64,000 bases of DNA from Prorocentrum cordatum (GCA_963575745.1 CAUYUJ010015750.1:129501-193500), one strand, 5' to 3'; shown: positions 15,611 through 31,581, counted from the first letter of the stretch. A program made the numbers and translations. The notes: generated by a model from the sequence alone, not told the origin.

Positions 15611-15615
15611 CACCG
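15611..15615. other. 5' target site duplication CACCG
   Basis: CACCG immediately precedes the 5' LTR and recurs at 31582-31586 immediately after the 3' LTR. TCACC with a one-base shift is equally possible. Confidence 0.75.
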
Positions 15616-15869
15616 ACTTTGAGGGTAGGTCTTTGGGATATGTTATAGTATCGGGAGCATAGCTCGCGCGCGCCGTTGCCTTTGGCCCAAGGCACGCGCG
15701 CCCTATTTGCCCGGACACCGCGAGTGTTCGCTATGTGCTGGAAAGATCACTACATCGATCTTATCCTATCTTATCCGTCCACCCCTCATACTGTACCTTC
15801 ACAGCAGAGCGATGGACGCAATTTGCCAGGCTATATGCCATATTTCAGCTACCAGGCTCACTTTCGACT
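15616..15869 (+). repeat. 5' LTR
   Basis: 254 bp, matching 31328-31581 at 250 positions. It begins ACTTTGAGGG and ends CTTTCGACT, so it lacks the usual TG...CA ends. It contains a strong GC hairpin around 15663-15701 (GCGCGCGCC ... GCCTTTGGCCCAAGGC ... GCGCGC) and a TTATAGTA word at 15643. The Gag frame is already open inside the LTR. Confidence 0.95.
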
Positions 15870-17388
15870 TGGTAGCGGAGCTGGCCGCACTCTCGTGTGG
15901 TCAGCTCTTGCTCTTCTTAGCCTCATATTCTTCGGCACGATCTTCGTGACCACCTACCACCCTGCGCCACCACTCCCAGTACGTTTACGAGGATCTATCC
16001 AAGAGCAAGAAGCAACACGAGAGGTACGACGTCTAGACGACCAGACTGGTACCATATACGCTTCATCATTGCGTTACCACCAACCGCTCGGCAACGAGCT
16101 AACAGCGCAATACTTGAAGCAGGGGCGGGGAGACCCGCCAGACAGAGCGCCTCGAAGACTCGACAAGGCGCTACCCCAGCGCGACAACGCGCATCATAAC
16201 CGTCCTTCTTTACACATTCTCGGGCTAGTCGTTTTCGCTATTATATGGTTCGCGCTGGGGGCAGCAATCGGACACATGCGTCGTGGAGAAAACAGCACCG
16301 ATGGGCAAACACATGGCCCATATTGGGACCCTCAAGGTAATGTACCTTTTCGTGAGTACATCTACGAGGTCAACGCATGGCTCAACGTTACAAGCGGACG
16401 TATGACGCCACAGGCCCAAGCGGCCGCAATACAACGCGGCCTAGGTGGCCTAGCGAGGACACTCGCCATGAGGGTACCGCCTGACATTATAAACTATGGT
16501 GCTGACATCGATGGGGTCCACACCGACCCAGTGACCTACATCATGTTCCTCCTAAGCATGAAGTTCGAACGCCTGGAAGATGAGCGACAGCTCACTTCCG
16601 GCACACAACTCATCGACTTCCACGTGCCCCACGGGGAACGAATCGATGTCACCCTTACCCGATTCGAAATGGCCCGACTTGAGGCACAGTCGGTGGGATT
16701 CGACCTTCCCAACTTCCAACTGCTAACCACTATCCTATTCCGCGCCTTAGGCGTCGGCAACCAGCGAGCCATGCAACTCTTACAGCCACTCAATCACCAA
16801 ATGCCCCGAACACAACAACAGTATGATGAGTTGCTGGAGAGGATGCGTTCGATAGGCCACCTATCTGAACGGTCTCCTGGTAACATAGGATCTGTGTTTG
16901 GAAGGGGAAGGGGATCTGGTAGTGGAAATTTCTACACTACCTTGACTACTGAAGCCCAGCCTGGAAACGGGCCCTCAAGCATATGGGCCGATGAACCAGG
17001 TGAATCCACTGCGTTACTAGCAGGGGATCGATCACAACCAAGCTGGGCAACCAGCCCTCCTTCTAGAGAACCACAACCACACCGTTCTCTATGGGGGGAA
17101 TCAAACCCCCTAACCGACGGTGTATCCACCTACTTGGGAGACGAGGATTTCGACTCCGGCACCGATACAGACACTATATCATCAGATGGTGTTGAAGCTT
17201 TAGATTGGTCAGATATGATGAACATGGATAACGACAATCAGCGTGCTGAACATTTGTTCTGGTTATTACAACAGGCTAAACGAAGGTGGAGGAGGTTCAC
17301 ACGAAAACCAGTGCGTCGTGTTAGAAGGAGGATACGTAGAAGTTTTAGAGAGGAAAGGGTAAAGGCAAGCGAGGTCGTCGGAGGTTGA
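15733..17388 (+). CDS. gag: Gag-like protein with two N-terminal membrane segments
   Basis: Structural protein of the LTR element. ATG codons at 15733 and 15835 are both inside the LTR; which is used depends on the transcript start, and I prefer 15835 only for economy. Counting from 15733, residues about 53-75 (LVWSALALLSLIFFGTIFVTTY) and about 159-181 (ILGLVVFAIIWFALGAAIGH) are strongly hydrophobic and look like transmembrane helices, which is not usual for Copia Gag. The helical Gag core follows (FREYIYEVNAWLNVTSGR through LLERMRSIGHL), then a GRGRGSGSG stretch, an acidic patch and a basic C-terminus (FTRKPVRRVRRRIRRSFREE). The zinc knuckle is not in this frame; it lies in the next frame, which overlaps this one at 17349-17388. 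Confidence 0.75.
   Translation: MCWKDHYIDLILSYPSTPHTVPSQQSDGRNLPGYMPYFSYQAHFRLGSGAGRTLVWSALALLSLIFFGTIFVTTYHPAPPLPVRLRGSIQEQEATREVRRLDDQTGTIYASSLRYHQPLGNELTAQYLKQGRGDPPDRAPRRLDKALPQRDNAHHNRPSLHILGLVVFAIIWFALGAAIGHMRRGENSTDGQTHGPYWDPQGNVPFREYIYEVNAWLNVTSGRMTPQAQAAAIQRGLGGLARTLAMRVPPDIINYGADIDGVHTDPVTYIMFLLSMKFERLEDERQLTSGTQLIDFHVPHGERIDVTLTRFEMARLEAQSVGFDLPNFQLLTTILFRALGVGNQRAMQLLQPLNHQMPRTQQQYDELLERMRSIGHLSERSPGNIGSVFGRGRGSGSGNFYTTLTTEAQPGNGPSSIWADEPGESTALLAGDRSQPSWATSPPSREPQPHRSLWGESNPLTDGVSTYLGDEDFDSGTDTDTISSDGVEALDWSDMMNMDNDNQRAEHLFWLLQQAKRRWRRFTRKPVRRVRRRIRRSFREERVKASEVVGG
15870..15881 (+). promoter_or_regulatory. Primer binding site, initiator Met tRNA type
   Basis: TGGTAGCGGAGC follows the LTR with no gap. 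A typical animal/protist initiator Met tRNA 3' end would need TGGTAGCAGAGG; 10 of 12 positions agree. It lies inside the open Gag frame. Confidence 0.7.
17349..17388 (+). other. Gag/Pol frame overlap (-1)
   Basis: The downstream frame opens after a TAG at 17346 and overlaps Gag's last 13 codons. There is no ATG in the downstream frame until after the zinc knuckle, so a -1 shift (or splicing) is needed to make Gag-Pol. The overlap contains AAAGGGTAAAGGC, but its AAAGGGT is not in the register of a canonical slippery heptamer relative to the Gag frame. Confidence 0.6.
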
Positions 17389-20300
17389 ACGGACGAGGCA
17401 TCGCGGCATTTCTCCAGAGGCTCTCAGATGAACAACATGATGAGATATTCTTTGGGGGAAAAGGCCGTGGTAAAGGCCGTAGAGAGACCTCAGGAAAAGG
17501 CAAAGGTAGGCGGGGAAACCCGCGAGGTAGAGACGGCCAGGTTCTTAAATGCCATGAATGTGGTAGTTCCGATCATCTTGTGCGAGATTGTCCAGTGAAG
17601 GGAAATGGAAAGGGCAGGTCGACCGAAGTCCATTTTGGCTCAAGTGAACCATCCATTGAGTATCTGAGCCTCCAGGACTTTGAGGCTATGGAGCAGATAT
17701 TTTTCACTTGGGTTGTTGGCATGGACAACGTCGACGAGCTCGAGGCGTATGGTCATGGATTGTACGCGTACTACCTCGAGTACGTCCGCCGGTTCGTTAT
17801 GGGCAATAACGAGCTCACTCCCGTGGACCACGGTGCGCTGGGAAACCAGCCTCTTTCTTTCTTCGACTGGATGTTCGGGAACCCAGGCAACATCATGGCC
17901 TACGAGAGCGACGACGAGGACACCACTATAGAGGCTTCGCCTTCCGAGGTTCAACGAAACCTCGAACCTCCGCCCGAAATCCCGCCTGGAAACAGGCCGT
18001 CTTTGATGGGAGAATATCCCCAGACCACTGAAGACTTAATTGAAATGGAGTCTCAGGCATTTGTTCAGGCCTTCATTGCAGGCGAACCAGATACTCCGTT
18101 CATACCTCCTGGTTCGCTTGCTCCAGGCGAATATGGACCACGCACCCTTTTGCAGACCCTCATGAGGATGCATGAGATACTTATTACTGGTTATCCTGAG
18201 AGTCAAGAACATATCGAAGCTGACATTATGATAGAACAGGATACTGATGCTTGTGGTAGCTCAGAGCTGTTGTTGGCAGCTCTGACTCTCATTGACAGCG
18301 CGCATCCTCAGGACGTGCAGAGACACTTGATATACTCCCGTGGTAGATGGCGTAATGCTCTAGAAATGGCTATTGCTATGCGCGGTCATGATCTTCCTCC
18401 GCCAGGATGGGGTCTCCAGGCGGTGGGAATGAGGCCAAACCATACGGCCATGCGCAACATTGCTGGGCAGCCTGTGCTCGGCAACGAGCCTGAGCCGACA
18501 ACAGTGCCTCCTACCCCGGGACAGCCGAGCGACGCACAGACGCCGGCTATGCAGGGAAACCTGCCTGTACCAGATACGCCAATGGCCATCATCATCGGTA
18601 GTTCGACATCAGAAGAAGTAGAAGGCGATGGTTGCGGGTTAGATGAGGATGACGTCACCATCCTCATGATGGACGTGAATTGTGAGGAAGAGGTTGACTT
18701 CGATCCTGACGAGTCTGAATCATCATCACCATCGGCACAAGCACCATTTGCGCCGAGCTCCACCCAGCAGGGAGACCTGCCTCCATCGGACGATCCATCT
18801 GGGATCGCACAGGAGCCTCCTCAGGCACCTCCACCGGGTGCCGCTCCTGCTGCTTCGGCAGCTTCTTCTGATGAGAACACCAGAAGGTCTCGTTCCCATA
18901 CGCGCGTCAGAGAAGAGCCACATCCACAGGCTCGACTTCCTCGTGAGTGGAGGCAGGCTGGCCCAAAAGAACACGCTCTCAGGAGAGGTGGCCAGCTACT
19001 TCCGTACAACGACCCAAGACGCCGAAAAGGGGAACACTCGGCCTTCGGCAAGGGCAACCCTGCCTGTAGGGACAGTGATGGCAAGGCCATCCGCGGAGGC
19101 TATCAGCTTGCAACAAATATCCGCCGCCCTGAAATTCAAGCAGCGCGGGCTCAGTTGCGAGACATTATCGCGGCGCGCAAGCAGTATAGGCCTCACGCAG
19201 CATGCGGACCTTGTTCCCAGCCGTTCCAGAACCACAGGCCAGGATGCCTCGTTGGCAACAACGAAGGCCTGAGCCCCAACAGGGGCAAAACCCCTCATAA
19301 AGAGGGCCATCCGCAACTTATCCCGATGACACAGGAAGAGATCGCAGAAGTGAATCGTCGTCTCGGGATCTTGAGCCACTTGGATCCGAAAGAAGAAGAG
19401 AAGCCTACTCCGGTTCCACGGGGACTGGTAGCCATGACCCAGGAAGAGAAAGACGCGCTCTTTAGTCTTCCTAGTATGCGAGGAAACTCGCCTGGCGTCT
19501 TTAGCCAGTCCCAACAACCAGAACCGACAATCAAGGATGAGAAAAAGGCTCAACGTGTGGCGGAGGACGAGGAGCGCATGCGGACAGCAGAAGAACGCAC
19601 TCGCGAGGCAACTCGCAAGATGTTGGAGGATTCTAGTAAGATCTACATGAAGAGGGCTCCGAAGCCCCCACTCCCACTAACTTCGAAGGCCAAGAGTGAA
19701 CCCCCGACACCTAAGCCGTCCTCGGTGCCGAAACCGAAGACGAGCCCTCAGGGCCCTGGGCCAGACGTGCAGATGGAGGTGCCTCGAACTGAAACCCCGA
19801 GGCCGCCGATTGGCGCAACTCCTACACAAGCGCCTGAGCCCAAGCAGCAACCTCAGGACCCTATGGAGGAACGAAGACGCCCGCCTAGTCGCAGCAGCTC
19901 CATTGCGAAAAAGGCGGCAGCTTTCGAGCGCAGTGGGTATGCACCTGCGCCAGCTTCGCCTGTGGCGGCCCGTTCCAGGAGGTCCGATGAAGGTGCTATG
20001 TCGAGGGGTACCTGGGTGCCGAAGATCAGGGGCAGCGCCAGTCGCGCATCTCCGCGGGGAAACCCGCCAGGCGCTGCCGCCGCAGCTTCCTCCTCTTCAG
20101 GAGCCGCAGCCTCTTCAGCAACAGAGGTTCCGATGCGGGGAAACCCGCCAGTGGTTCAGCTGCACCACCCAGGTGACACGTCCTTCACTAGTGGGACTCC
20201 GAATGTGATCAGGGATAGACTTGCGCTTCGGAAGCCCCCACCGATACGCTCGGTGGATGAGACATTCATGAAGGAATGCAGGAAAGCTGGAATCCTTCCC

Positions 20301-22724
20301 ACATCCAATGATATTCTCAAACAGCTGAGCAAAGCTCTCAGCAGGATATGCAGACATGCGCCAGACAGGCAACACAATCCTGTGTGGAGCCTGGAATCTT
20401 TCGATGATCATGATGGTTGGGTTAACCTAGTGGAACTCGTGGACCGTTACCCGTGGAACACAGGTCAATCAAGACACACTGGGTATAATCCAAGATATGA
20501 CGAGGCCAAGGTCATCAACGAGCATCTATGTAGGCGCTCGGTTGACCAACTAGCAGCCATCATGATGGAAGTTGTTCATGTTCGTGAACCAGACGGAGAA
20601 GAAAAACAGCGCCTACAGTTCAAGGTGTTGATGCGGGACTCCGGAGAGCCCGCTATCTTCGTCCGCGCCTCTCAGGGGCATTCATGGGAATTGAAAGCTC
20701 CATGGTCGCTGTACAGCTACATTGTGCTGTGCGACCAACCTGCCGGGAGACCGGCCCCATACCCCGATGTTGCTATGCATGGCACTCGATGGCACGCCTT
20801 CGAAGGGATTACGTGGCACGGCCTGTCCTGTAGACCTGAGCATAACACGAAGAAAAAGGGGACAGGCCGGTCGCACATTCATTTCGTGCCGACAGTTCGC
20901 CGCCGTGCCGTGAACAGTGGGTGGGACCCAGACTCAGACATCATCATCTTCGTAGATTGGCGTAAGGCCATACAAGATGGCATGAAGTTCTGTTGGTCCG
21001 ATAACGGAGTCCTCTTGTCCGAGGGAGATAACGGCATCATTGAACCGTATTATATCTCTCATGTAGAGGACCTGTCCACAGGAAGGCACTGGCGTAATCC
21101 AGAGTATCTGGGGAGCCGCCATGCGCGAGTCTCTGTCGCAACGATGTCTGCTCCTGACAGGTGGGCTGACGTTGGCACTGCTAGCGTTAAGTACCAGTGG
21201 TCCCGAGACCAAGGGGGCGTTGACCCCCCTATGGGTTACCTCCACAGGGAAGTTGGGGACCACTACAGCCCCACCAAGCTGGGAAACCAGCCTGAGATCT
21301 ATCGGATCTTCATGATTACCGAGAGTGAGGCCGGGAGCGCGGCTCCAAGCCGTGCCCCAAGCCAAGGGCCTAGTGCCGTGTCTTGGCAGGCCATCAGTAC
21401 CTCGGACCTGGATCAGATCGCAGCCGCGCTGAACCCTGACCAGGTAGAACAGCTGGCGGACAGGCTATACCAGCAGGACCCCTGGGCCGCAGGCCAGGGA
21501 GCAATGTCCGCTATGGCTACGAGAAATCGTCAGGCCATGCAGGGAAACCTGCCTACAAGCGGACCTGCTCGGTTTGAGCCAATGCATGGAAGCCCTACTC
21601 AGAGCATGCACACTCCAAGGGGCATGACTCCATTGGGCACACCACCGGCACAATCCCCAGTCGGGACACCTGTCCGCCCTGCCACAAACGGCACTCTCAT
21701 GGAGAGGATAGCTGCGGCCAGGGCTGAACACAGCACAGCCCTCCTCAACATGATGCCGCCCGGCACGCCAACGAGTCAGCAGGGGAACCCGCCTGGCACA
21801 CCAAGCCACCACAGGGCGGGTGTACCTGACGACTGTCGCTCAAGAGTGGCGGCCGCGGTGCAGCACGTGCAGAGCCATAATCTGCCTCACCCAAGTGGGC
21901 AGAGGTGGAGGCCAGCCTGGTCCTGGGAGCCTGAGGGTCCCAACCCACGGGATCCTGCTCGGCAACGAGCCTTTATCCCGGCGTTCAATGCCCATCCGAG
22001 CATGTCTCAGGGCCAGAGGCCACCACCAGCGCAGATGAACCCGCCATTATACCCTGATGGGTCAAGGGTTCCGAACAAATTTGTTCGTGAATTGGCGGAT
22101 CAGATGCATAACCTCACTAATGTGCGCTGCAGTGACCATTCCATGTACCCGCACATGGCCTTCATGCCTTCACCGACATCACCAGAGGTGGTTGTCCAGC
22201 CCACTGCCCATTCAATATCGTCTGGCAGTAGGGGCGTGCCTGACTACATCAGGCAGACGCACCACACTCAGCAGGCATGCTTCAGGAGAAGGCAGGCGGT
22301 GCAAAGTGTACGGGATCAGTCACGTGCAGCTGCACTTGATGTGGTGAGAAACAGGGGCTCACCTTTGCGAGGAAACTCGCCCGCCGCGATTCCTACCACT
22401 TCCATGCCAAATGTCGACGTGCAGGAGGTGCTGAATCCAACGGGGACACCCCCATCAGCCTTCATGCCCTCCGAGACGGTACTGGAGAGGCAGCGGCGGG
22501 TATATCCCAGGGCAGCAGACGTAGAGGTCTTTACTGGGATGGAAGATACCTGTGCGGTATGCCTCGAAGAATTTCAGCCCAGGGACAGCGTCTACCGCCT
22601 GAGGTGCAACCACTTGTTCCACGAGGGATGCTGGAATTCAGATGTGGTGGGCCACGTTGCAAACCAGCGTGAGGGAGATCCCAGCAGCCACCATGTGCTA
22701 TCTGCCGAGCACCTGGCATCATAG
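17349..22724 (+). CDS. Pol part 1: CCHC knuckle, Tpt1/KptA-like domain, RING-H2
   Basis: A frame of about 1,790 codons with no usable ATG at its start. Residue numbers count from 17385. CHECGSSDHLVRDC (about 57-70) is a CX2CX4HX4C retroviral zinc knuckle. A spliced-leader-like scar follows at DNA level. Residues about 150-970 are proline/serine-rich and low in order. Residues about 975-1230 match the RNA 2'-phosphotransferase family: LSKALSRICRH (the Arg-His pair), DGWVNLVELV, VRASQGHSW, MHGTRWHAFEGI, SHIHFVPT and KFCWSDNGVLLSEG occur in family order. Near the C-terminus, CAVCLEEF ... CNHLFHEGC is the first part of a RING-H2 finger; the last Cys pair (CAIC) is found only in another frame at about 22692-22706, so this frame ends through a frameshift. 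That the Tpt1-like domain is active is inferred only from conserved motifs. Confidence 0.8.
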   Translation, partial: RGKGKGKRGRRRLNGRGIAAFLQRLSDEQHDEIFFGGKGRGKGRRETSGKGKGRRGNPRGRDGQVLKCHECGSSDHLVRDCPVKGNGKGRSTEVHFGSSEPSIEYLSLQDFEAMEQIFFTWVVGMDNVDELEAYGHGLYAYYLEYVRRFVMGNNELTPVDHGALGNQPLSFFDWMFGNPGNIMAYESDDEDTTIEASPSEVQRNLEPPPEIPPGNRPSLMGEYPQTTEDLIEMESQAFVQAFIAGEPDTPFIPPGSLAPGEYGPRTLLQTLMRMHEILITGYPESQEHIEADIMIEQDTDACGSSELLLAALTLIDSAHPQDVQRHLIYSRGRWRNALEMAIAMRGHDLPPPGWGLQAVGMRPNHTAMRNIAGQPVLGNEPEPTTVPPTPGQPSDAQTPAMQGNLPVPDTPMAIIIGSSTSEEVEGDGCGLDEDDVTILMMDVNCEEEVDFDPDESESSSPSAQAPFAPSSTQQGDLPPSDDPSGIAQEPPQAPPPGAAPAASAASSDENTRRSRSHTRVREEPHPQARLPREWRQAGPKEHALRRGGQLLPYNDPRRRKGEHSAFGKGNPACRDSDGKAIRGGYQLATNIRRPEIQAARAQLRDIIAARKQYRPHAACGPCSQPFQNHRPGCLVGNNEGLSPNRGKTPHKEGHPQLIPMTQEEIAEVNRRLGILSHLDPKEEEKPTPVPRGLVAMTQEEKDALFSLPSMRGNSPGVFSQSQQPEPTIKDEKKAQRVAEDEERMRTAEERTREATRKMLEDSSKIYMKRAPKPPLPLTSKAKSEPPTPKPSSVPKPKTSPQGPGPDVQMEVPRTETPRPPIGATPTQAPEPKQQPQDPMEERRRPPSRSSSIAKKAAAFERSGYAPAPASPVAARSRRSDEGAMSRGTWVPKIRGSASRASPRGNPPGAAAAASSSSGAAASSATEVPMRGNPPVVQLHHPGDTSFTSGTPNVIRDRLALRKPPPIRSVDETFMKECRKAGILPTSNDILKQLSKALSRICRHAPDRQHNPVWSLESFDDHDGWVNLVELVDRYPWNTGQSRHTGYNPRYDEAKVINEHLCRRSVDQLAAIMMEVVHVREPDGEEKQRLQFKVLMRDSGEPAIFVRASQGHSWELKAPWSLYSYIVLCDQPAGRPAPYPDVAMHGTRWHAFEGITWHGLSCRPEHNTKKKGTGRSHIHFVPTVRRRAVNSGWDPDSDIIIFVDWRKAIQDGMKFCWSDNGVLLSEGDNGIIEPYYISHVEDLSTGRHWRNPEYLGSRHARVSVATMSAPDRWADVGTASVKYQWSRDQGGVDPPMGYLHREVGDHYSPTKLGNQPEIYRIFMITESEAGSAAPSRAPSQGPSAVSWQAISTSDLDQIAAALNPDQVEQLADRLYQQDPWAAGQGAMSAMATRNRQAMQGNLPTSGPARFEPMHGSPTQSMHTPRGMTPLGTPPAQSPVGTPVRPATNGTLMERIAAARAEHSTALLNMMPPGTPTSQQGNPPGTPSHHRAGVPDDCRSRVAAAVQHVQSHNLPHPSGQRWRPAWSWEPEGPNPRDPARQRAFIPAFNAHPSMSQGQRPPPAQMNPPLYPDGSRVPNKFVRELADQMHNLTNVRCSDHSMYPHMAFMPSPTSPEVVVQPTAHSISSGSRGVPDYIRQTHHTQQACFRRRQAVQSVRDQSRAAALDVVRNRGSPLRGNSPAAIPTTSMPNVDVQEVLNPTGTPPSAFMPSETVLERQRRVYPRAADVEVFTGMEDTCAVCLEEFQPRDSVYRLRCNHLFHEGCWNSDVVGHVANQREGDPSSHHVLSAEHLAS
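17623..17644 (+). other. Dinoflagellate spliced-leader scar inside Pol
   Basis: CCATTTTGGCTCAAG (17630-17644) equals the last 15 bases of the 21-22 base dinoflagellate spliced leader. The six bases at 17623-17628 (CCGAAG) match the leader's 5' part (CCGTAG) with one difference, one extra T separating the two blocks. It lies just after the zinc knuckle and before the disordered region leading to the Tpt1-like domain. Confidence 0.7.
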
Positions 22725-24457
22725 CGTCATCCTTCCCATGGACCGGCTCCTTTAGTCAGACTCCTGAGCAATCAGCGAGAGAGCTGCGGGAGCTGAGGAG
22801 CATGGTGGAGGAGATGACGTCTAGGATGCTAGCTATGCAGACAGCTCCGTCACAACAGCAGGGATACCTGCCTGAAGAGGTAAGGCCGCCTATGGAAACG
22901 GGATATTTTGATCAGCTTATCCCGATGACGGCGCCTCAGCAGGGAAACCTGCATGATACTCCTCAGATGTCTCCCCAGAGTGGAGGCGAGGCTGAGATGT
23001 CACTGGACCCTGATCAGCTGCGTGAATTGCGTGCACGACATTTCCAGAATCAGATGGATAATACGCACACAACATTTATGCTGGATGCCAAGAATCCTGA
23101 AACTGATAGTCCGTCGCTAGACTTATCAGAATCCTCAGTGGCGTCAGTAGCAACAGCAGCCAGGGCCGTCAACATCGCAGCGACGAACGAGGAGTTCGAG
23201 GAGTGGCTGCAATACCGGGATCACATCGCGAACGAGGGGCTGCAAGACATCGCCCTTCACTCGTACCTGACGTTGATAAGGCGCACGACCCGCGAGCAGT
23301 ATAAGAGCATACGTGATGAGTATGCCAACTGGCGGGAGGAGCGTGGCGATCACGCCCAGCACGTGTCGCACTTCCAGTACATCGACCTGGCACGCATGGC
23401 CGAGAGCGAGTCGCATGCCAGTGTCATGCGGGGGAACCCGCCAGGGAGCACGACTGTGCCGCGGGGAAACCCGCCTAACGACACAGCCGACACTTCAGAA
23501 ACTGTGCGCATCAAGCAGCCGAGTAAGACGTTCTTGGATGATGGTGGACATTCCATACTCATCGACGTCGGTTCGAAGATCAACATCATGGGCGAGAACA
23601 CGAGCCGTAACTTCGTCCAGGCTGCCGAGGCACATGGCCGTACTTGTACGTTCGAGCCCCGCTCTCGTTTGAATATCAACGGGGTGGGAGAAGGGTCGGC
23701 CCCAGCGGATGCCGCAGGCACATTCAGTATTGCCTGCGAGTACCAGGGGTCGGCCCAACTCGATTCATACAAGACGAACATTGTGTCAGGCTGTGGCAAG
23801 GACCTGCCAGCCATCCTAGGCCTCGACAGTATGCAGGACAAACGCACGATCATCGTGCTTGAACGAGGCCAGGAGAAGCTGATATTCCCTGGTAAGGGGC
23901 AGGTCAAAATGGAGCTCCCAGAAGGCTCCAAAATCATGCCGACGACAAAGTTGCCGTCAGGGCATCTGTCGATCAGGTGTGATTGTTTTGGAGCTGCGGG
24001 GCAACCCGCCTCGAGCTCAAGCAGCACGTCCTTCCAGACAGTGCTGACAGGCGAGCCGACCCCAGCGCAGGAGCGCAATCAATTGCAGGGAAACCTGCCC
24101 CAGGGGTTGATGGAGACGCTCGCCAAGGCCACCATGCGAGGCGACAACATCGACGATCTCGAGACGTTCGATTGTTTTGTTGCCAGGACACTGGCCCTGC
24201 ATGGTGGTAGTGTACCCATGGGCGCTGTACAGTCCCGCCGTAAGATAGTGATGGGATACACTAACCGTGAATTGCATACGGTCAGCGACGCTAGGTCCAA
24301 AGGCGTGCTGAAACAGCCGATGGATAATCCATCGATGCTGACAGCATTTGCGGAGCAATCCGCCTCTGAGGCCACGGCGCGCTGCAGTGCTGAGCTCCAG
24401 CATCTGAGGGAAGCCCAGATGCTGGCAGATATTGTAGGCACATCTTCTTCATCTTGA
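22690..24457 (+). CDS. Pol part 2: RING remnant and aspartic protease
   Basis: Continues the polyprotein in another frame; upstream of the first ATG (22802) the frame is open back to the last RING Cys pair (CAICR). Residues about 250-265 from 22802, ILIDVGSKINIMG, sit where retropepsins have D-S/T-G followed by the flap-side strand; here the triplet is D-V-G. FSIACEYQG, then KDLPAILGLDSM about 75 residues further on, fits the second half of a retropepsin. The frame ends at a TGA (24455-24457), but the same frame stays open beyond it. The protease would process the polyprotein. The valine at the catalytic triplet is either a family variant or a damaged site. Confidence 0.65.
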
Positions 24458-24479
24458 AGATGGCAGGGCGACGTCGCCC
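24455..24479 (+). promoter_or_regulatory. In-frame TGA followed by a stable stem
   Basis: The TGA at 24455-24457 is followed after 8 bases by the perfect palindrome GGGCGACGTCGCCC (24466-24479). The frame is open on both sides. This could be a readthrough signal or just a stop mutation next to a GC palindrome. Confidence 0.4.
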
Positions 24480-24880
24480 CCTCGTCGTCTTGCCTGTTGG
24501 CTGAAAAGCCGGGGGGTAACAAGGACAGCGGGGTAACCTGCCTTAGTAAGAGGGCTTTTGTCATTGAAGATACGAGGGAGGCATGTGCCGACCTCCGCAC
24601 ACGAGGTTATATTTGTGATCGTATTTCCCACAACGAACTTATGACAAGCGTGGGCACAAACTACCTAGGTGCGGTGATCAGTGGAGATTACACTCTCATA
24701 TGGATCAGTACTCCGAGTGACTGGTACGTAAGAACTCCAGGAAAGAGAGTGGCCCCACATTGGTCACGTATCCAGAACCTGTTGATAAAAGCTAAGAAAC
24801 TCCGCATGAAGATCATAATATTTGTCCCCCAGGATATGTTTGGAAGTTATCTCCAGTACGTGACACCCTGGAAGATCTAA
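24458..24880 (+). CDS. Pol part 3: fragment between stop and frameshift
   Basis: Same frame as the protease part. It encodes a mixed alpha/beta-looking segment (YTLIWISTPSDWYV, KKLRMKIIIFVPQDMFG). The plausible continuation (VRDTLEDLKLSVIRMRLCHF) is in the next frame, so a frameshift lies near 24850-24880. I do not recognise the fold with certainty; it may be the N-terminal half of the domain that continues in part 4. Confidence 0.5.
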   Translation, partial: RWQGDVAPSSSCLLAEKPGGNKDSGVTCLSKRAFVIEDTREACADLRTRGYICDRISHNELMTSVGTNYLGAVISGDYTLIWISTPSDWYVRTPGKRVAPHWSRIQNLLIKAKKLRMKIIIFVPQDMFGSYLQYVTPWKI

Positions 24881-27800
24881 AGTTGTCAGTAATACGGATG
24901 CGTTTGTGTCATTTCGGTATTCGGTTCAATATGCAAGACAGTGCACCAAGCGGTACGTATATGCAGGTAGCATCTTCAATACCGATTAGCTCGAAGCTGT
25001 GGGCATGTACCTGTAAGCAGGCAATGCCACAACATGTGTTGGATTGGTACGGCCATACAGTGCGGCATGCTGAATGGCGAGCTCAGACACGCACTACACT
25101 CATCCGTCATTTGAACGACAACATCCTGGGGAGCACCACCACGCACGGAAACGTGCCTGTATACTTAAATACGTATACACGTACAGACCACAACACCCGT
25201 CACTACGTGACGACCAATAAGGGAGGACCAAAATGGTCTGAAGTCATCCGACGTGTAACAATCAACCTGGATACCAATGCGGTTATTCAGGATATCTCAG
25301 TTACCGATCAACCAACAGGATATGATTGGCATGCACTATTACCCGCAGGGGTTGCCAACATCAGTACTCGGTTGTATTGGCAACCCGAGGAACCGGTCTT
25401 GCTCGGAAACGAGCCGACTCAATCACCACATAAACATCGACGCGTCATCATAGATGACTGTTCTCTCCCCCTCCCGACTCTGGCGATTGACGCATGTACC
25501 CATTCAACCGCGACAATGAGTACACAGACCGACGAACAAGACGAGCAAGCTTTACCCACTGAATCGCGTATAAAGCAGAAGGAGAGGCTCAAAGCCGAAA
25601 AGGAAGCAGGCATCAAGCCTCGCCGCATTAAAAAGCACGTTGAAGGCGGAAACGATGATTGCGGCGACGACTTGTCAGGACTCGGACAGGATCTTATGGC
25701 AACCTGGAGTACTGACGTCCCTGTTGAGCTGATAAGCTCCGACGAGGACGATGACCTGTTCCTTACCCTCCCCACATCTATGCCCGACACACACGCTAAC
25801 ATATACAGCATAGTTGCTACACTATGCTATGGCCATAACAACTGCGTGGATATGTTGGAGCTTTGTGGCGGTGAGGGCGGCATCTCAGAGCTTGCCTTCT
25901 CAAGGGGACTTTCCTCAGGCGGCAACTTGGACAAGACTACATATGTCGACCTGGGAGACCCCTCGGTGCAGCAGGTTATAGACCATTACTTTGCTATATG
26001 CTACGTACGAGTTGCCATACTGCAACCCAGCTGTCGCACCACAGGACCACCATCCTACTACAACTACAAAGTCAACTACAACACTTGGGAACAGCACCAT
26101 AAAGAAGACTTACCACACATAACTTATTGTGGTAAAATTGCTGCAACCCAAGATGACTCTCGGAGGTGGTTTATACGCGAACAACCTACAAGAACATGGG
26201 TAGATGATATTTCTCCATGGAAGAAGCTTGCCAACCGACCACACATTACAACCGTGCGCATTGACCAATGCGCTACGGGACTTAAAGACACGACTGGTGA
26301 CTATATTAAGAAGCCGACAAATACCACCAGCAACGACGAGACAATTCTTAAACCCTTTGAGCGACTCAAGTGTAACGGTCAGCATGTGCACGCACAACCG
26401 TGCAATACCGAGCTTTCACTGGCACAAAAATACACCCGACGACTGCAGTCTGCCTTCGTGGAAGCTGTATATCTGGCGAAAGCCATTGACACCACGCGCG
26501 GAAACGCGCCTATAAGTACCGCACATGCTTATCCTACAGACCTTCCCGATCAAGCTGAACCAGGCGAAGGTATGAGACGCATCGGTGATCGTATCATCCC
26601 AAAGGTGGCTACTTGCCCGGCATGCATCGACAACGTCCGAAAGGACAGTCCTAGCCATAACAGAGACCCTACGCAGTGTAAATATCATGATTCCATCTCT
26701 GTATATTGGCCATGTCCAGCATGTCAGAGGGATCTTACGAGAAGCAAGGGTGTTAAGAACCACCTCGATACCGAACCTGGTAAATGTCGTTTTGCTGAAC
26801 CATTTAAACTACCAGACGACCACGACCCCGAAGGCAAAACCGTGCCAGCTTGGTGGAAACCCTTACCTAAACCTGGTGAGGGCCAAGCTTCAGCTTCAGG
26901 TGGCCGTCAAGGCGCACACGCCAGGCCACCGCGACCACGATCCTTCGGCAACGTCGATCCGACATCTGGTGCCAGCAGCTACGACATGCTACGAGACGCC
27001 CCCGAGCGTGGAAACACGCCTTCTGCGTCTTCTAGCGAAGTGCCACAGGTAGCGGCCCGCCGCGGCCGTCTACAAGGCGTACCACCACCTCCAGACGCAG
27101 TTAACACAGGGGACCAACTACGGAGAGCTACAAGGAACCCTCTTGCCTCCACCGGCTCTGGGGCTCCACGACTACCCGACTGGACGAGATTCGACATCCA
27201 ACACAGTCTACAGAGTCTCCGTAGTCACGAACCTCATGTCGTGAAAAAGGAACTCCGAAAACTGCATCTGCGATGGCATCATGCGAAGGAGCCAAAGATG
27301 AGGCTAATCCTCGAAAAGGTGGGGCTTGATAACGTTCGACTGAACATGATCAAGGAAGTTTGCGATACCTGTCGGGAATGCAGAGCATGGGAACGTCCAG
27401 GAAACTCAACACTAACATCGGTGAGCCTTCCTGGTAACTGGCTCGATGAAGGGGAAATGGACCTCATGTTTTACAAGAAACGGACCATATTTCATATTAT
27501 GGATCGTTGTATTCGCCTGGCAGCAGGCCTAGAAATTTCCGACAGAGAACGTGACACTATCATCGACGCCTACCACTACTGCTGGATTGCCTATCGCGGA
27601 CCCTTCCAAGTTTTATACTCAGACGGAGAAGGCGCCCTGAATAACGATGCCGCTAAAACCAGGATGGCCAATAAGGGCACGGAACTTCGTATCCGAGCAC
27701 CTGGCCAACGCGCGACTTCAATTGAGTCACGAAACGGCATTCTTAGAGGCGTCCTCCACATGATTGAGGAAGAATTGAATAGACACAACATCCCTGTTGT

Positions 27801-29319
27801 ATTCACTAGAGTACTGGCGGAAGGCATCTTCGTTACTAATGCGTTTACGTGTTATAACGGAGTATCGCCATATCAGGCACACGCAGGACGTCAGCCTTCT
27901 TTCCTCCCTGATCTCGATACCCTTGACTTTCCCAAAGGACCCGAGACTTCAGGACACGAACGAGAACGTCGTGTAAGGGAAGTCAGCCTAGCAGCCATAA
28001 CTCAGGCTACTGCTGTGGCCAAGACAAATCGGGCTCTTAGGGCTAAGACGACTCCTGATGGTGCTCGCCTCTACTCATCAGGGGATTTGGTCGATTACCA
28101 CCGACCTACTGCCACCAAGGACGACCATGGAGGCTGGAATGGCCCATTCCCGGTGATCCGAAATGTGCCTGAAAGAGGACATATTGTTGTCAAGGCAGGA
28201 TGTCGTGAAGTAATTGTGATGTATCCTGATGCTCGTCACACACTATACATCGAATGTCTCCTCACACGGGAACTTGGCATGGATAATATGGCCATGCAAA
28301 CCGTCCTTGCTTATGTGGCACACCTCAGCGCAGGGAAACCTGCCAAAATTTTCGGTTATATCCCCGATTACAAGGGAAACCTTAATCTGTCAGACGACAG
28401 CAAGTTTCACCCGCGCGTACACTTAGCACTACAGTATCTCGTACGAAATTACTTCCGAGTAGAACATGTAGTAGCAGTTCGATTGGCTAAGAGTGTGTCA
28501 AGCCTACCTGCAGTAAAGTACGCCACCGGGTCTACGCTGATCCACTATGACAACGACATCAGCCCGGCGTTCCACTATTACGAATGTGTGGGCACCGGCT
28601 TAAACATTTCTCAGATCACTGGTAGCACTCACTCCAGACTTATTCAATGCTTGACTTCACGTGTCCCTTCCTTAGGATTTCACGACGATTTGGCTAAATA
28701 TCAGCATCCAAGCAACACGTCTGGAGAACACGAGTCGCCTGGAAACAGGCCTTCTCCAGACACACCAGATGCTTCATCGCCGAGTGAAGGCCGTCTGTCG
28801 ACAATCTATGAGGAAAATGAGGAACACAATATCGAAGCTATGATGCTGGAAGAGTGGTACGACGAGCTACGTATGGACCTTCATCCTACGACGATTACTG
28901 ATGATTATCTTTATTGCGTCCCAACAACGATGCTGCCCGACCAATGTGTTTTGGTTTCAGCATTTGTGGACGAAGATGATATTATATCATCAGATATGCT
29001 CGGAGACGAGCCGAAATCAAGTGAATCCTATCTAGTCTCTCTTTGTTCAACCACAACCGACGAGAGTTACTCCCTTGACAGTGATGAATATGGTCCTTAC
29101 GTTGAATTATGTTTTACATCGGAAATGTCAAAAATAGTGTTGGATCAGACTCAACTTGCACAGCTCGATACCGATATGGTCGCAACGATGAGAGTATATG
29201 TATCCTCTGCTGCTAAACGTGCTGTGGCTGTCAAAGAAGATGATCTACTGACCAAAGCCGACATAGCAGCACATCCAAAGGAGGTTAGTGAAGCTTTGTA
29301 TACTGAGCTCAAAATCTAG
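24856..29319 (+). CDS. Pol part 4: methyltransferase-like domain, zinc motifs, integrase
   Basis: Residues count from 24883. About 315-545: LELCGGEGGISELAFSRGL, THEN A DLGDP turn and LQPSCRTTGPPSYYN resemble motif I and motif IV of a Rossmann-fold SAM-dependent methyltransferase; the exact class is not clear. About 577-640: CPACIDNVRK ... CKYH and CPACQRDLTRSKGVKNHLD look like zinc ligands. About 794-960: integrase, with HLRWHH ... CDTCREC as the HHCC motif and catalytic acids in EMDLMF, YSDGEG and SIESRN (33 residues between the last two, near the usual 35). A GDLVDYHRP ... GGWNGPFPVI segment follows as the integrase C-terminal part. The last 350 residues are acidic and unrecognised. The frame ends at a single TAG (29317-29319) and stays open after it. 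Confidence 0.8.
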   Translation, partial: VRDTLEDLKLSVIRMRLCHFGIRFNMQDSAPSGTYMQVASSIPISSKLWACTCKQAMPQHVLDWYGHTVRHAEWRAQTRTTLIRHLNDNILGSTTTHGNVPVYLNTYTRTDHNTRHYVTTNKGGPKWSEVIRRVTINLDTNAVIQDISVTDQPTGYDWHALLPAGVANISTRLYWQPEEPVLLGNEPTQSPHKHRRVIIDDCSLPLPTLAIDACTHSTATMSTQTDEQDEQALPTESRIKQKERLKAEKEAGIKPRRIKKHVEGGNDDCGDDLSGLGQDLMATWSTDVPVELISSDEDDDLFLTLPTSMPDTHANIYSIVATLCYGHNNCVDMLELCGGEGGISELAFSRGLSSGGNLDKTTYVDLGDPSVQQVIDHYFAICYVRVAILQPSCRTTGPPSYYNYKVNYNTWEQHHKEDLPHITYCGKIAATQDDSRRWFIREQPTRTWVDDISPWKKLANRPHITTVRIDQCATGLKDTTGDYIKKPTNTTSNDETILKPFERLKCNGQHVHAQPCNTELSLAQKYTRRLQSAFVEAVYLAKAIDTTRGNAPISTAHAYPTDLPDQAEPGEGMRRIGDRIIPKVATCPACIDNVRKDSPSHNRDPTQCKYHDSISVYWPCPACQRDLTRSKGVKNHLDTEPGKCRFAEPFKLPDDHDPEGKTVPAWWKPLPKPGEGQASASGGRQGAHARPPRPRSFGNVDPTSGASSYDMLRDAPERGNTPSASSSEVPQVAARRGRLQGVPPPPDAVNTGDQLRRATRNPLASTGSGAPRLPDWTRFDIQHSLQSLRSHEPHVVKKELRKLHLRWHHAKEPKMRLILEKVGLDNVRLNMIKEVCDTCRECRAWERPGNSTLTSVSLPGNWLDEGEMDLMFYKKRTIFHIMDRCIRLAAGLEISDRERDTIIDAYHYCWIAYRGPFQVLYSDGEGALNNDAAKTRMANKGTELRIRAPGQRATSIESRNGILRGVLHMIEEELNRHNIPVVFTRVLAEGIFVTNAFTCYNGVSPYQAHAGRQPSFLPDLDTLDFPKGPETSGHERERRVREVSLAAITQATAVAKTNRALRAKTTPDGARLYSSGDLVDYHRPTATKDDHGGWNGPFPVIRNVPERGHIVVKAGCREVIVMYPDARHTLYIECLLTRELGMDNMAMQTVLAYVAHLSAGKPAKIFGYIPDYKGNLNLSDDSKFHPRVHLALQYLVRNYFRVEHVVAVRLAKSVSSLPAVKYATGSTLIHYDNDISPAFHYYECVGTGLNISQITGSTHSRLIQCLTSRVPSLGFHDDLAKYQHPSNTSGEHESPGNRPSPDTPDASSPSEGRLSTIYEENEEHNIEAMMLEEWYDELRMDLHPTTITDDYLYCVPTTMLPDQCVLVSAFVDEDDIISSDMLGDEPKSSESYLVSLCSTTTDESYSLDSDEYGPYVELCFTSEMSKIVLDQTQLAQLDTDMVATMRVYVSSAAKRAVAVKEDDLLTKADIAAHPKEVSEALYTELKI

Positions 29320-30960
29320 ATTGATAATCGATGCTTTGAGATGTATGATTTATCCAAAGCTTCCAACATCATGACATCCAGATATGTATACAAGTGGAAG
29401 GTTGTAAAGATGGGTACCGAGAACGTTAAAACCATTCGCCTCAGACTGGTCCTTCGTGGATTTATGGATACTGAGGCTTTTGATGTGGAAACATTTTCGG
29501 GAACCGCCCGAAGGCAGTCCCAACGATTCCTGGCAAGGGAAGCGGCATGCCATCCAGAGTGGATCTTAGCATCCATGGATATCGATAAGGCGTTCCTCAA
29601 GGGTTTGACCTATGAGGAACTTGCCCATGCCACCGGCGAGGAAACTCGCATGGTATGCTTTACTCTTCCACCAGGAAGTGCTCAGGTACTTCGTACATTA
29701 CCCGGCTTCTCATCTTACGACGAAAGTCGACACTGTCTTAGATGCCTCAAACCAGGAACGGGTACAAAGGACGCTCCAAGAGCGTTCCCTCTCAAACTTC
29801 GTACGACCACACGAGCTATAGGACTTACACCGACCAGCTACGATCTTGAATTTGAATTCAGCCAAGACCTTCTGACGGCAAAACATGTCGATGATATTAA
29901 CATGACAGGTCTAGAGAAAAATATAGACGACTATGTACAACGTGTCGAAAAGGTGTTTGGCAAATGCAAGCTCAACAAGCACACATATACGAACTGCGCC
30001 GTTCGCTACACTAAGAATGATCAAGGAGATGTGATCATGGACCAGGACGAGTATATCAAACAACTACGTCCTATCACACACCCAGAACTTACAGGAGCGG
30101 CGGCCGATGCCAAAGCCACGAAACTCATTACCGACATGTTCGTCAGCCTGCGAGGAGCCCTCGCCTATGCCCTTCTTACCCAAATCTGGCTCATGGTATA
30201 CGTGGTCTCTCTTCAGAAAATTCAAGAGCCCACCAATCTGCAAGTCAGACGTTTGAATGCTGTGACGCGAAAGCTGATCAGCAGCCCGAAACGTATCACC
30301 TTCCCTCGGATGAAGCCGACGAATGAAGTTGACATCCATAGCGATTCGGGGTATCGGAAGCTTACCGGGGAGGAGGATGACGAGACCAAGGGCTACGGCA
30401 TACGCGGGGCCAATGTACTACGGCGAGGAAACTCGCCTCAAGGCAAGTCCGTCGTTCACCTTTGTGACGGACTATGCAAATCACACCGATTACAGGTGAG
30501 GTCCAGTTATGCTGCGGAGGCACTTGCAGCTGCACATAACCTTGATGAGTGTTACCCTACGCTCATTACTCTCCACGAGCTTAAGGTAGGAGCTTTGACT
30601 CAACGACAACTACGAGACATGCGTGAAGTTGGGGGCCTAGCCATCAAAGTCTCTCTTACCATAGACGCCGAGTCCGTCTACAAATCTTTATCAAGCAGGG
30701 ATCTCAAGATACCTACAGAACGGACTCTGCTTGGACATATCAGCTGGATACGTGAGCTCATGGATATAGGTATAGTACATAATGTGCAATGGTGTGATAC
30801 TAGGGATATGACCGCAGATGGGCATACAAAGGGAAGCATCGATCGGGAGCTGCTTCTGGAAGTGATGTCAGGCACTCAGTCATTTAAGTATGACGTGAAG
30901 CAATTTGTTCCCTTTCGGGGTCCCGAGGACAGAGACAAACCTAAGTCTAATCAATTTTAG
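29320..30960 (+). CDS. Pol part 5: Copia reverse transcriptase and RNase H
   Basis: In frame with part 4 across one TAG. Residues count from the ATG at 29341. RYVYKWKVVKMG and ETFSGTARRQSQ are the start of the Copia RT (RVT_2) domain; ASMDIDKAFLKGL (about 78) is motif A; KHVDDINMTG (about 181) is the catalytic loop, with HVDD in place of YVDD. RNase H follows: HSDSGYRKL (about 333), SSYAAEALAAA, LTIDAESVYKSL and DTRDMTADGHTK supply the D-E-D-D set. The RT copies element RNA and RNase H removes it. All catalytic acids I can place are present, so this part looks functional apart from the upstream TAG. Confidence 0.88.
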   Translation: MDNRCFEMYDLSKASNIMTSRYVYKWKVVKMGTENVKTIRLRLVLRGFMDTEAFDVETFSGTARRQSQRFLAREAACHPEWILASMDIDKAFLKGLTYEELAHATGEETRMVCFTLPPGSAQVLRTLPGFSSYDESRHCLRCLKPGTGTKDAPRAFPLKLRTTTRAIGLTPTSYDLEFEFSQDLLTAKHVDDINMTGLEKNIDDYVQRVEKVFGKCKLNKHTYTNCAVRYTKNDQGDVIMDQDEYIKQLRPITHPELTGAAADAKATKLITDMFVSLRGALAYALLTQIWLMVYVVSLQKIQEPTNLQVRRLNAVTRKLISSPKRITFPRMKPTNEVDIHSDSGYRKLTGEEDDETKGYGIRGANVLRRGNSPQGKSVVHLCDGLCKSHRLQVRSSYAAEALAAAHNLDECYPTLITLHELKVGALTQRQLRDMREVGGLAIKVSLTIDAESVYKSLSSRDLKIPTERTLLGHISWIRELMDIGIVHNVQWCDTRDMTADGHTKGSIDRELLLEVMSGTQSFKYDVKQFVPFRGPEDRDKPKSNQF

Positions 30961-31327
30961 TCTGTCCTTGTTGCCCTCGCGGTCCAATTTGCCAGCACGG
31001 GCGCCTACTATAAAGGCGCCCCTCTAGTTGCTCGGAAACGAGCCTTATATTTCACGCCTGGCAACGAGCCGGCTTCGTACAACTCAGGCTCTTTGCCTTA
31101 ATACACATTTGCTTGGTGAGGTATGGCCTGTTTGGCTTACCTCTAACTGAGCCGATAGCCCTTCATTGTTTGAAGGGGCTGTCTTGTATTTGCGTGAAAT
31201 GCTTTGCGAGGAAACTCGCCTTGCAGTCTGGTGTTAGGCCAGACTGTACGCACTGTTTTCCTTGTTTGCAAGCAGTCGTGCGCGCGACCGTTGCGTGCGA
31301 CTATGCTCTCCGTCTCCTCCCCTCCCG
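30961..31327 (+). other. 3' untranslated segment of the element
   Basis: No long frame. It holds three of the GNRA hairpins (31030, 31056, 31206). Just before the 3' LTR the plus strand is polypyrimidine (CGTCTCCTCCCCTCCC, 31310-31326) rather than the expected polypurine tract. Confidence 0.75.
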
Positions 31328-31581
31328 ACTTTAAGGGTAGGTCTTTGGGAGATGTTATAGTATCGGGAGCATAGCTCGCGCGCGCCGTTGCCTTTGGCCC
31401 AAGGCACGCGCGCCCTATTTGCCCGGACACCGCGAGTGTTCGCTATGTGCTGGAAAGATCATTACATCGATCTTATCCTATCTTATCCGTCCACCCCTCA
31501 TACTGTACCTTCACAGCAGAGCGATGGACGCAATTTGCCAGGCTATATGCCATATTTGAGCTACCAGGCTCACTTTCGACT
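31328..31581 (+). repeat. 3' LTR
   Basis: 254 bp, four differences from the 5' LTR. It is followed by CACCG (31582-31586), the target duplication. Confidence 0.95.

What the first reader, a model, noticed from the sequence alone, without database searches (positions are those of the whole stretch)
16086..31219. About 41 covarying GNRA-tetraloop hairpins scattered through one retrotransposon
Seen directly: a 14-base unit (five bases, tetraloop, complementary five bases) recurs from 16086 to 31219. There are 13 different stems (e.g. GCAGG/CCTGC, GCTCG/CGAGC, GCGCG/CGCGC, GCGTG/CACGC, GCGGA/TCCGC), nearly all with matching changes in both arms, and the loop is nearly always GNRA (GAAA, GCAA, GAGA, GGAA, GTAA). 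Covariation plus loop constraint is the signature of selection on, or copying of, a structure. It is not protein-driven: five copies are in other reading frames (17042, 23996, 24350, 28330, 29636) and three are in the untranslated 3' part. None lie in the LTRs, and I found none in the other 48 kb. GNRA loops are known to be unusually stable and to dock into RNA receptors. Inference: a distributed packaging, Gag-binding, RNA-stability or template-switch signal, or a self-spreading micro-hairpin that multiplies inside the element.
Basis: partly seen in the sequence, partly recalled or inferred. Interest (0 to 1): 0.94.

Follow-up and report, generated by a model that had tools for sequence, protein, structure and literature searches.

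The report
Forty matching RNA hairpins in retrotransposon
A very abundant jumping gene of a dinoflagellate-like genome carries about 40 copies of one tiny RNA hairpin along its whole message, kept paired by evolution there and in related elements, which looks like a repeated tag by which the element's own protein could recognise its RNA.

Summary
The 16-kb Ty1/copia-type LTR element (15616-31581) has 36 perfect N5-GNRA-N5' hairpins on its sense strand; 200 dinucleotide shuffles average 0.63 (maximum 3), and protein-preserving codon shuffles average 2.4 against 34. Searching GCnnG-GnnA-CnnGC without requiring pairing gives 41 sites, 37 Watson-Crick and 2 G-U. Siblings at 79-85% identity keep them: third codon positions differ at 4% in hairpins, 38% nearby (copy B). 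Double-sided changes occur at five sites. Three further lineages (L015/L016, L017, L018) carry the same hairpins on their sense strand in mixed reading frames; L017 and L018 hold 10 of 23 as G-U, none as A-C. A more distant element has none. This is RNA-level purifying selection, not chance or peptide, and hardly DNA. The self-spreading idea gets little support: positions are shared between copies and no precise insertion was found. Best explanation: dispersed recognition sites for an RNA-binding protein, most likely the element's Gag/nucleocapsid (Arg-rich stretch, zinc knuckle), i.e. redundant packaging signals. The binding protein is inferred, not shown.

The parts
15616..15869 (+). 5' LTR (254 bp), flanked by 5-bp target repeat CACCG at 15611-15615
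   Evidence: 98% repeat pair; ends read
15870..15881 (+). TGGTAGCGGAGC, primer-binding-site-like (initiator tRNA-Met type, recalled)
   Evidence: sequence read; not tested against a tRNA
15871..17388 (+). ORF1, Gag-like; Arg-rich stretch near its end (about 17275-17355)
   Evidence: translation; Arg-rich stretch kept in the 3 siblings examined (one change in C); no Pfam family
17547..17594 (+). CCHC zinc knuckle (nucleocapsid type)
   Evidence: PF00098 E 3.7e-4, residues 67-82 of window:17349-18548
17349..22724 (+). ORF2 with Tpt1/KptA RNA 2'-phosphotransferase domain (about 20319-21026) and RING finger (about 22545-22634)
   Evidence: PF01885 9.2e-23 and PF13639 1.2e-6; PDB 7yw3 1.9e-11
22673..24457 (+). 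ORF3; protease-like ILIDVGSK near 23555 (by eye)
   Evidence: ORF; protease is by eye only, Pfam nothing above cut-off
24796..29319 (+). ORF4, integrase-like part about 27450-27750 (by eye); in other copies one frame with the RT
   Evidence: RT lies in an open frame of 2167 aa in 16 of the 79 copies scored
29320..30960 (+). reverse transcriptase part, Ty1/copia type
   Evidence: PF07727 3.5e-9
16086..16099 (+). hairpin GCTCG-GCAA-CGAGC
16125..16138 (+). hairpin GCGGG-GAGA-CCCGC
16453..16466 (+). hairpin GCGAG-GACA-CTCGC (GNNA loop)
16959..16972 (+). hairpin GCCTG-GAAA-CGGGC (one G-U pair, also G-U in the 3 siblings)
17042..17055 (+). hairpin GCTGG-GCAA-CCAGC, off-frame
17510..17523 (+). hairpin GCGGG-GAAA-CCCGC
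17837..17850 (+). hairpin GCTGG-GAAA-CCAGC; sibling A has GCTCG/CGAGC (double change)
17984..17997 (+). hairpin GCCTG-GAAA-CAGGC
18476..18489 (+). hairpin GCTCG-GCAA-CGAGC; broken in sibling A
18551..18564 (+). hairpin GCAGG-GAAA-CCTGC
18767..18780 (+). hairpin GCAGG-GAGA-CCTGC
19250..19263 (+). CGTTG-GCAA-CAACG, doubtful member: not the class, not kept in B or C
19478..19491 (+). hairpin GCGAG-GAAA-CTCGC; B and C have GCGGG/CCCGC (double change)
19603..19616 (+). hairpin GCGAG-GCAA-CTCGC, off-frame; outer pair broken in C
20054..20067 (+). hairpin GCGGG-GAAA-CCCGC
20135..20148 (+). hairpin GCGGG-GAAA-CCCGC
20742..20755 (+). hairpin GCCGG-GAGA-CCGGC, off-frame
21278..21291 (+). hairpin GCTGG-GAAA-CCAGC; broken in B
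21539..21552 (+). hairpin GCAGG-GAAA-CCTGC; A-C mismatch in C
21779..21792 (+). GCAGG-GGAA-CCCGC, A-C mismatch here; perfect in the 3 siblings
21957..21970 (+). hairpin GCTCG-GCAA-CGAGC, off-frame
22367..22380 (+). hairpin GCGAG-GAAA-CTCGC
22858..22871 (+). hairpin GCAGG-GATA-CCTGC; B and C have GCGGG-GAAA-CCCGC (double change)
22939..22952 (+). hairpin GCAGG-GAAA-CCTGC; absent from A (longer gap), broken in B
23428..23441 (+). hairpin GCGGG-GGAA-CCCGC
23461..23474 (+). hairpin GCGGG-GAAA-CCCGC
23996..24009 (+). hairpin GCGGG-GCAA-CCCGC, off-frame
24085..24098 (+). hairpin GCAGG-GAAA-CCTGC
24182..24195 (+). hairpin GCCAG-GACA-CTGGC (GNNA loop); broken in C
24350..24363 (+). hairpin GCGGA-GCAA-TCCGC, off-frame
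24528..24541 (+). hairpin GCGGG-GTAA-CCTGC (one G-U pair)
25143..25156 (+). hairpin GCACG-GAAA-CGTGC
25401..25414 (+). hairpin GCTCG-GAAA-CGAGC
26496..26509 (+). hairpin GCGCG-GAAA-CGCGC
27006..27019 (+). hairpin GCGTG-GAAA-CACGC
28330..28343 (+). hairpin GCAGG-GAAA-CCTGC, off-frame; GCGGG/CCCGC in L016, GCGGG/CCTGC (G-U) in L017
28737..28750 (+). hairpin GCCTG-GAAA-CAGGC; absent from L016 and L017, broken in B
28998..29011 (+). hairpin GCTCG-GAGA-CGAGC
29636..29649 (+). hairpin GCGAG-GAAA-CTCGC, off-frame; absent from L016 and L017
30423..30436 (+). hairpin GCGAG-GAAA-CTCGC; GCGTG/CACGC in L016 and L017 (double change)
31030..31043 (+). hairpin GCTCG-GAAA-CGAGC, 3' untranslated
31056..31069 (+). 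GCCTG-GCAA-CGAGC, unpaired here and in A; G-U paired in B and C
31206..31219 (+). hairpin GCGAG-GAAA-CTCGC, 3' untranslated; broken in B
31328..31581 (+). 3' LTR, followed by CACCG at 31582-31586

Best explanation
The hairpins are copies of one RNA recognition element, 5'-GC-NN-G-[GNNA, here mostly GNRA]-C-N'N'-GC-3', spread over the whole genomic RNA of a Ty1/copia-type element and held by purifying selection on the folded RNA (shown by sequence comparison). They act as many redundant docking sites for one RNA-binding protein (inferred). The likeliest reader is the element's own Gag/nucleocapsid, whose Arg-rich stretch and CCHC knuckle follow each other (anatomy shown, binding inferred). By multivalent binding it would pick the long element RNA out of the cell's RNA and condense it into the particle (inferred). 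Sites arise and are lost between lineages; any frame will do, with a preference in this family for one frame (pattern shown, cause unknown).
For: Far above chance and above what the protein sequence gives. Pairing without ascertainment: 37 of 41, permutation mean 5.9. Sense strand 36, minus strand 1. Conservation: third codon positions in hairpins differ from sibling B at 7 of 165 versus 270 of 719 nearby; arms 10 of 360. In 30 close copies (the window's own among them), over the 7 hairpins from 28330 on, variability 0.0017 versus 0.0151 outside and 0.0286 in untranslated DNA. Double-sided changes at 17837, 19478, 22858 among siblings and at 28330, 30423 between lineages. RNA rather than DNA: in L017 and L018, 10 of 12 non-Watson-Crick sites are G-U, none A-C; genome-wide G-U forms 800 and 74 versus A-C forms 193 and 37. 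Peptide not conserved: in L016, L017 and L018, of 19 sites with exactly one locally open frame, 9 are in frame 0, 3 in frame 1, 7 in frame 2. Gag-like ORF1 has an Arg-rich stretch kept in the 3 siblings examined, followed by a zinc knuckle.
Against: No binding partner, packaging assay, transcript or particle was examined. Nothing ties the hairpins to Gag specifically; a host protein would leave the same pattern. Retroviral packaging signals concentrate near the 5' end (recalled); these run to the 3' end. Spacing is irregular (33 to 1324 bases). In the other lineages the loop is GNNA, not strictly GNRA, so a GNRA-specific reader is doubtful. In this family the frame bias (26 of 34) is not explained by RNA selection alone. 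Context folding puts 30 of 36 above 0.5, but shuffled flanks give the same 30 of 36. A-C mismatches do occur in this family (21779 in W, 21539 in C). The 800 G-U matches seem in part a standing form of one family, so are not independent.
Confidence: 0.5

Rival explanations
1. The hairpins bind a host RNA-binding protein that exports, stabilises, localises or translates the long element RNA (a distributed transport-type element).
For: All the evidence for an RNA-level recognition site applies equally. Sites reach into the 3' untranslated part.
Against: Of 4 lone GCGWG hits sampled, 3 were the L016 family and 1 a repeat unlike the elements read here; a host site would be expected in host genes too. 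Host genes were not surveyed.
Confidence: 0.25
2. RNA-only role: GNRA loops dock into helices of the same RNA or a partner RNA, compacting or dimerising the genome.
For: GNRA loops are known docking motifs (recalled); 38 of 41 loops in this element are GNRA.
Against: No 11-nt receptor stood out: CCTAAG 3, TATGG 22, one nearby combination (crude count without a control). Loops of the other lineages are often GNYA, which should weaken docking. The stem ends GC...GC are fixed too, which loop docking does not need.
Confidence: 0.08
3. A self-spreading micro-hairpin that multiplies by insertion or duplication inside the element, with no function for the element.
For: High copy number in one element; sibling B has a 16-base tandem gain at 31206 and B and C a 63-base block with a degenerate unit at 21560; some metagenome relatives show tandem HGNV/RGNA units inside inserts (protein only); 28737 lies in a stretch about 12 bases longer than in L016.
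Against: Positions are shared across copies about 20% diverged and some across lineages; no precise gain of one perfect unit among the indels listed; a useless insert would not be held at about a tenth of the neighbouring third-position divergence nor keep G-U pairs.
Confidence: 0.07
4. Templated correction or snap-back copying during reverse transcription makes and keeps the arms complementary, without selection.
For: Would explain perfect arms and double-sided changes.
Against: G-U stems in L017 and L018 should be corrected away. It does not explain the fixed GC...GC ends, the GNRA loop, the sense-strand bias, or low variation of loops as well as arms. Perfect stems with loops other than GNNA number 19, close to the 15.7 that shuffles give for all loops.
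Confidence: 0.03
5. The Tpt1-like domain and the hairpins form one RNA cut-and-repair or splicing pathway (hairpins cut, ends joined, 2'-phosphate removed by the element's own enzyme).
For: Tpt1 domain in the element and a weak relative in hairpin-bearing L018.
Against: No splicing pattern, ligase or nuclease seen; hairpins lie inside open frames and are kept in DNA copies. Association of the two features was not tested across families.
Confidence: 0.04

Closest known systems
Dispersed packaging signals of single-stranded RNA viruses (review PMC6281560, abstract and outline read; PMC5431903 and PMC7793301 seen as listings with the start of the abstract)
   Same: Many stem-loops with a shared recognition motif spread along the genomic RNA.
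   Different: Here a cellular LTR retrotransposon; one 14-nt form at 41 sites, visibly covarying and used in any reading frame; no coat protein contact shown.
Retroviral packaging/dimerisation stem-loops with GNRA or GNRA-like loops (recalled; PMC5874298 seen as listing with the start of the abstract)
   Same: Short stems with purine-rich tetraloops read by a nucleocapsid with zinc knuckle.
   Different: Those are few and near the 5' end; here about 40 over 15 kb.
Phage lambda boxB RNA read by the Arg-rich N peptide (recalled)
   Same: Short stem with a GNRA-like loop fold, target of an Arg-rich peptide.
   Different: Few copies, for antitermination; here no such role is known.
Bypassed inserts (byps) of Magnusiomyces capitatus mitochondria (PMC5009743, passages read; the name byp is recalled)
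   Same: Many short units (81 instances in that text) inside coding sequence of one genome.
   Different: Those inserts are skipped by the ribosome; these hairpins sit in open frames and are fixed in position.

Membership tests
Ty1/copia-type LTR retrotransposon | LTR pair with short target repeat | tested here: met
   257-base repeat pair at 98%; CACCG on both sides read
Ty1/copia-type LTR retrotransposon | RVT_2 (copia-type) reverse transcriptase | tested here: met
   PF07727 3.5e-9
Ty1/copia-type LTR retrotransposon | protease and integrase upstream of RT | tested here: inconclusive
   motifs by eye only; Pfam found none in the window's copy; one homologue carries PF00665 (P0080)
Dispersed packaging signals | several to many stem-loops with a shared motif along the genomic RNA | tested here: met
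   41 sites, 37 Watson-Crick plus 2 G-U
Dispersed packaging signals | conservation of the fold beyond coding need | tested here: met
Dispersed packaging signals | specific binding by the coat/Gag protein and effect on assembly | not testable with these tools
   needs a binding and packaging assay
Mobile micro-inserts (byp-like) | filled versus empty sites between close relatives | tested here: not met
   four copies compared; no precise gain of one perfect unit among the indels of 6 bases or more listed; a 16-base tandem gain in B, a 63-base block in B and C and a larger gap in A involve hairpin-like units
Mobile micro-inserts (byp-like) | unit is skipped in translation | not tested
   no transcript or protein data; frames stay open through the in-ORF hairpins
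Any Rfam family | match at gathering score | tested here: not met
   0 matches in 15000-32000

The most novel reading that the evidence does not exclude
A clade of giant dinoflagellate-type LTR retrotransposons marks its own RNA with a redundant, covarying hairpin code of some 40 sites per molecule, read by a dedicated RNA-binding protein of the element, so that self-recognition is spread over the whole genome instead of resting on one 5' packaging signal.
Probability: 0.45. Interest if true: 0.92.

Novelty: new variant of a known kind. Interest (0 to 1): 0.85.

Why it matters
Dispersed packaging signals in RNA viruses are hard to see because their motifs are loose (recalled). Here one uniform motif recurs about 40 times, with covariation and conservation visible by simple counts, in an element present in very many copies. 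If Gag reads it, this is a clean natural test of multi-site genome packaging and the first such code I know of in an LTR retrotransposon. Full-text searches of open-licence papers gave no report of it: searches found no paper, one search listed 10 of 17 and none by title or abstract start concerns it. It would also give a sequence tag for finding members of this clade in dinoflagellates.

Tried and rejected
Chance: rejected. Peptide repeat xGNxP as the cause: rejected by codon shuffles (34 versus mean 2.4), by 8 off-frame and 2 untranslated copies, and by mixed frames in the other lineages. DNA palindrome: disfavoured by G-U over A-C (caveat above). Mobile micro-hairpin: no precise insertion. 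Tetraloop receptor: crude motif count, nothing. Rfam: none. Relatives in IMG/VR: 4 pattern matches, none confirmed, one of 8 scans used. Protein search with 19800-22721: none at E 0.001. Protein-level test in metagenome relatives, hairpin-compatible pairs around G-N: 16 of 60, shuffled mean 8.3, 1 of 2000 shuffles as high; a second set gave 8 of 48, mean 5.3, 597 of 5000. Around G-D: 6 of 83 (mean 3.7, 280 of 2000) and 6 of 53 (mean 2.9, 219 of 5000). Around G-H: 8 of 85 (mean 5.5) and 1 of 21 (mean 1.7). Around G-Y: 3 of 117 (mean 6.5) and 2 of 32 (mean 0.8). So evidence from other species is weak. My first analysis of the 30 close copies forgot to turn minus-strand loci; one search replaces it. 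Of the first 28 of 100 places listed, 9 are perfectly paired; the rest look like background.

Full report
What is there. The window lies in a 4.13-Gb genome of 21,875 contigs. Its G+C of 59.8% (counts) fits Prorocentrum cordatum (59.7%, but a size of 4,750 in the same table of PMC11453091, passages read); the species is my inference. At 15616-31581 there is a 16-kb LTR retrotransposon: LTRs of 254 bp (repeat pair at 98%), CACCG on both sides, a TGGTAGCGGAGC motif after the 5' LTR, a Gag-like ORF1, a CCHC knuckle, a Tpt1/KptA domain, a RING finger and a copia-type RT. Its RT finds 12,950 first-look candidates; the 79 scored are all at least 98% identical, so the family is young and large.

Chance. 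36 perfect N5-GNRA-N5' units lie on the sense strand of the element, against a mean of 0.63 and maximum of 3 in 200 dinucleotide shuffles. With the protein kept and codons shuffled, 34 in ORFs against a mean of 2.4 and maximum of 8 in 300. Without asking for pairing, GCnnG-GnnA-CnnGC gives 41 sites in the element, 37 complementary; permuting the 3' arms gives a mean of 5.9 and maximum of 14 in 5000. The other 48 kb give 3 sites, none complementary.

Siblings. Copies A (93-96% identical in the two halves), B and C (79-85%) were aligned in halves. Of 164 cells (41 sites in W, A, B, C) 142 are Watson-Crick, 9 paired with G-U, 11 broken, 2 gapped; 2 of the broken are A-C. Third codon positions in hairpins differ between W and B at 7 of 165, nearby at 270 of 719, elsewhere at 1428 of 3950; for C 7 of 161 against 272 of 703; for A 6 of 160 against 82 of 713 (36 hairpins, 19250 and 24350 included). 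In 30 close copies, the window's own among them, the mean non-major fraction is 0.0017 over 98 positions (7 hairpins), 0.0151 over 3303 others, 0.0286 over 309 untranslated ones. Double-sided changes: 17837 (G-C to C-G in A), 19478 and 22858 (A-T to G-C in B and C).

Other lineages. L015/L016 (RT 75% identical to the window's), L017 (59%) and L018 (73% identical in DNA to L017 where they overlap; only its part upstream of the RT was read) carry the same hairpins on their sense strands. At 28330 the stem is GCAGG/CCTGC in the window's family, GCGGG/CCCGC in L016 and GCGGG/CCTGC, a G-U form, in L017. At 30423 it is GCGAG/CTCGC in the window's family, GCGTG/CACGC in L016 and L017. 28737 and 29636 are missing from L016 and L017. 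With pairing not required: L016 10 of 10 Watson-Crick, L052 6 of 6 (a near copy of L016, 99%), L017 4 of 10 plus 5 G-U, L018 7 of 13 plus 5 G-U; the two left over, one in each, are not A-C. Loops there are GNNA rather than strictly GNRA, and the C that follows the hairpin in 30 of 36 cases in the window is not kept. A more distant element, L051 (RT 40%), has none in the 5.5 kb read.

Genome-wide. GCNNGGAAACNNGC: 18,674 and 19,450 on the two strands, reversed-pattern control 3,675 and 3,744. GCGWGGAAACWCGC: 5,855 against 103; of the first 100 listed 99 have matching arms. Most of these look like copies at fixed sites, so they are not independent. G-U forms GCGGG/CCTGC 800 and GCGAG/CTTGC 74; A-C forms one change away from the same paired stems, GCAGG/CCCGC 193 and GCAAG/CTCGC 37 (reversed controls 73, 6, 53 and 18).

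What it is not. The hairpin is read in frame 2 (mostly xGNxP) in 26 of 34 in-ORF cases here. In L016, L017 and L018, of 19 sites with exactly one locally open frame, 9 are in frame 0 (mostly AGxPA), 3 in frame 1, 7 in frame 2; 14 others had none or several. It also stands in the 3' untranslated part. So the peptide is not the conserved thing, though the frame bias within this family remains unexplained. No precise hairpin insertion was found among four copies.

How it likely works. Uniform stem ends and loop, freedom of the two middle pairs, sense strand, many copies, any frame: this is what a protein-binding RNA site looks like. The element itself encodes a fitting reader, a Gag with an Arg-rich stretch kept in the 3 siblings examined and a zinc knuckle. 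I therefore favour dispersed packaging signals, as described for RNA viruses (PMC6281560, abstract). The binding step is inference; a host protein is the main rival.

Other species. RT relatives come from mostly unnamed metagenome records, one Polarella glacialis and one Pyramimonas entry. Some have tandem HGNV/RGNA units in a variable stretch. Hairpin-compatible pairs around G-N are in excess in one protein set (16 of 60, mean 8.3) but not clearly in another (8 of 48, mean 5.3). DNA of these was not available.

Literature. Searches for dinoflagellate retrotransposon hairpins (2 papers), GNRA with retrotransposon packaging (none), dinoflagellate GNRA (none) and LTR retrotransposon GNRA Gag covariation (10 of 17 listed) showed no report of this in titles or abstract starts; the library holds open-licence papers only.

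Mended against the calls: reading frames in the other lineages (earlier 'mostly frame 0'), L017 and L018 kept apart, indels that carry hairpin-like units, sources of the metagenome proteins, and A-C mismatches within the family.

Noticed in passing
window 20319-21026 and about 22545-22634: The retroelement's ORF2 carries a Tpt1/KptA RNA 2'-phosphotransferase domain (PF01885 9.2e-23) and a RING finger; L018 has weak relatives of both (28% at 1e-8, 33% at 1e-7).
   Followed up: partly
window 15871-17388: The Gag-like ORF1 has two long hydrophobic stretches in its first third (read by eye).
   Followed up: no
window 24796-30960: The copy in the window is interrupted; 16 of the 79 copies scored have the RT in an open frame of 2167 aa.
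   Followed up: no
window 31300-31327: The stretch before the 3' LTR is pyrimidine-rich on the + strand where a polypurine tract is expected.
   Followed up: no
L055 401 and 2202: GCGTGGAAACACGC recurs inside a longer repeat unit with no match to the elements read here.
   Followed up: partly
window 13467-13525 and 14983-15041: 59-base direct repeat at 88% with a GGGTTGGGGGG end, in the DNA before the element.
   Followed up: no
P0008, P0012, P0025, P0044: Metagenome RT relatives hold repeated HGN/RGN-type units in an insert just after the place of hairpin 30423, suggesting local multiplication in other species; P0008's are not hairpin-compatible.
   Followed up: partly
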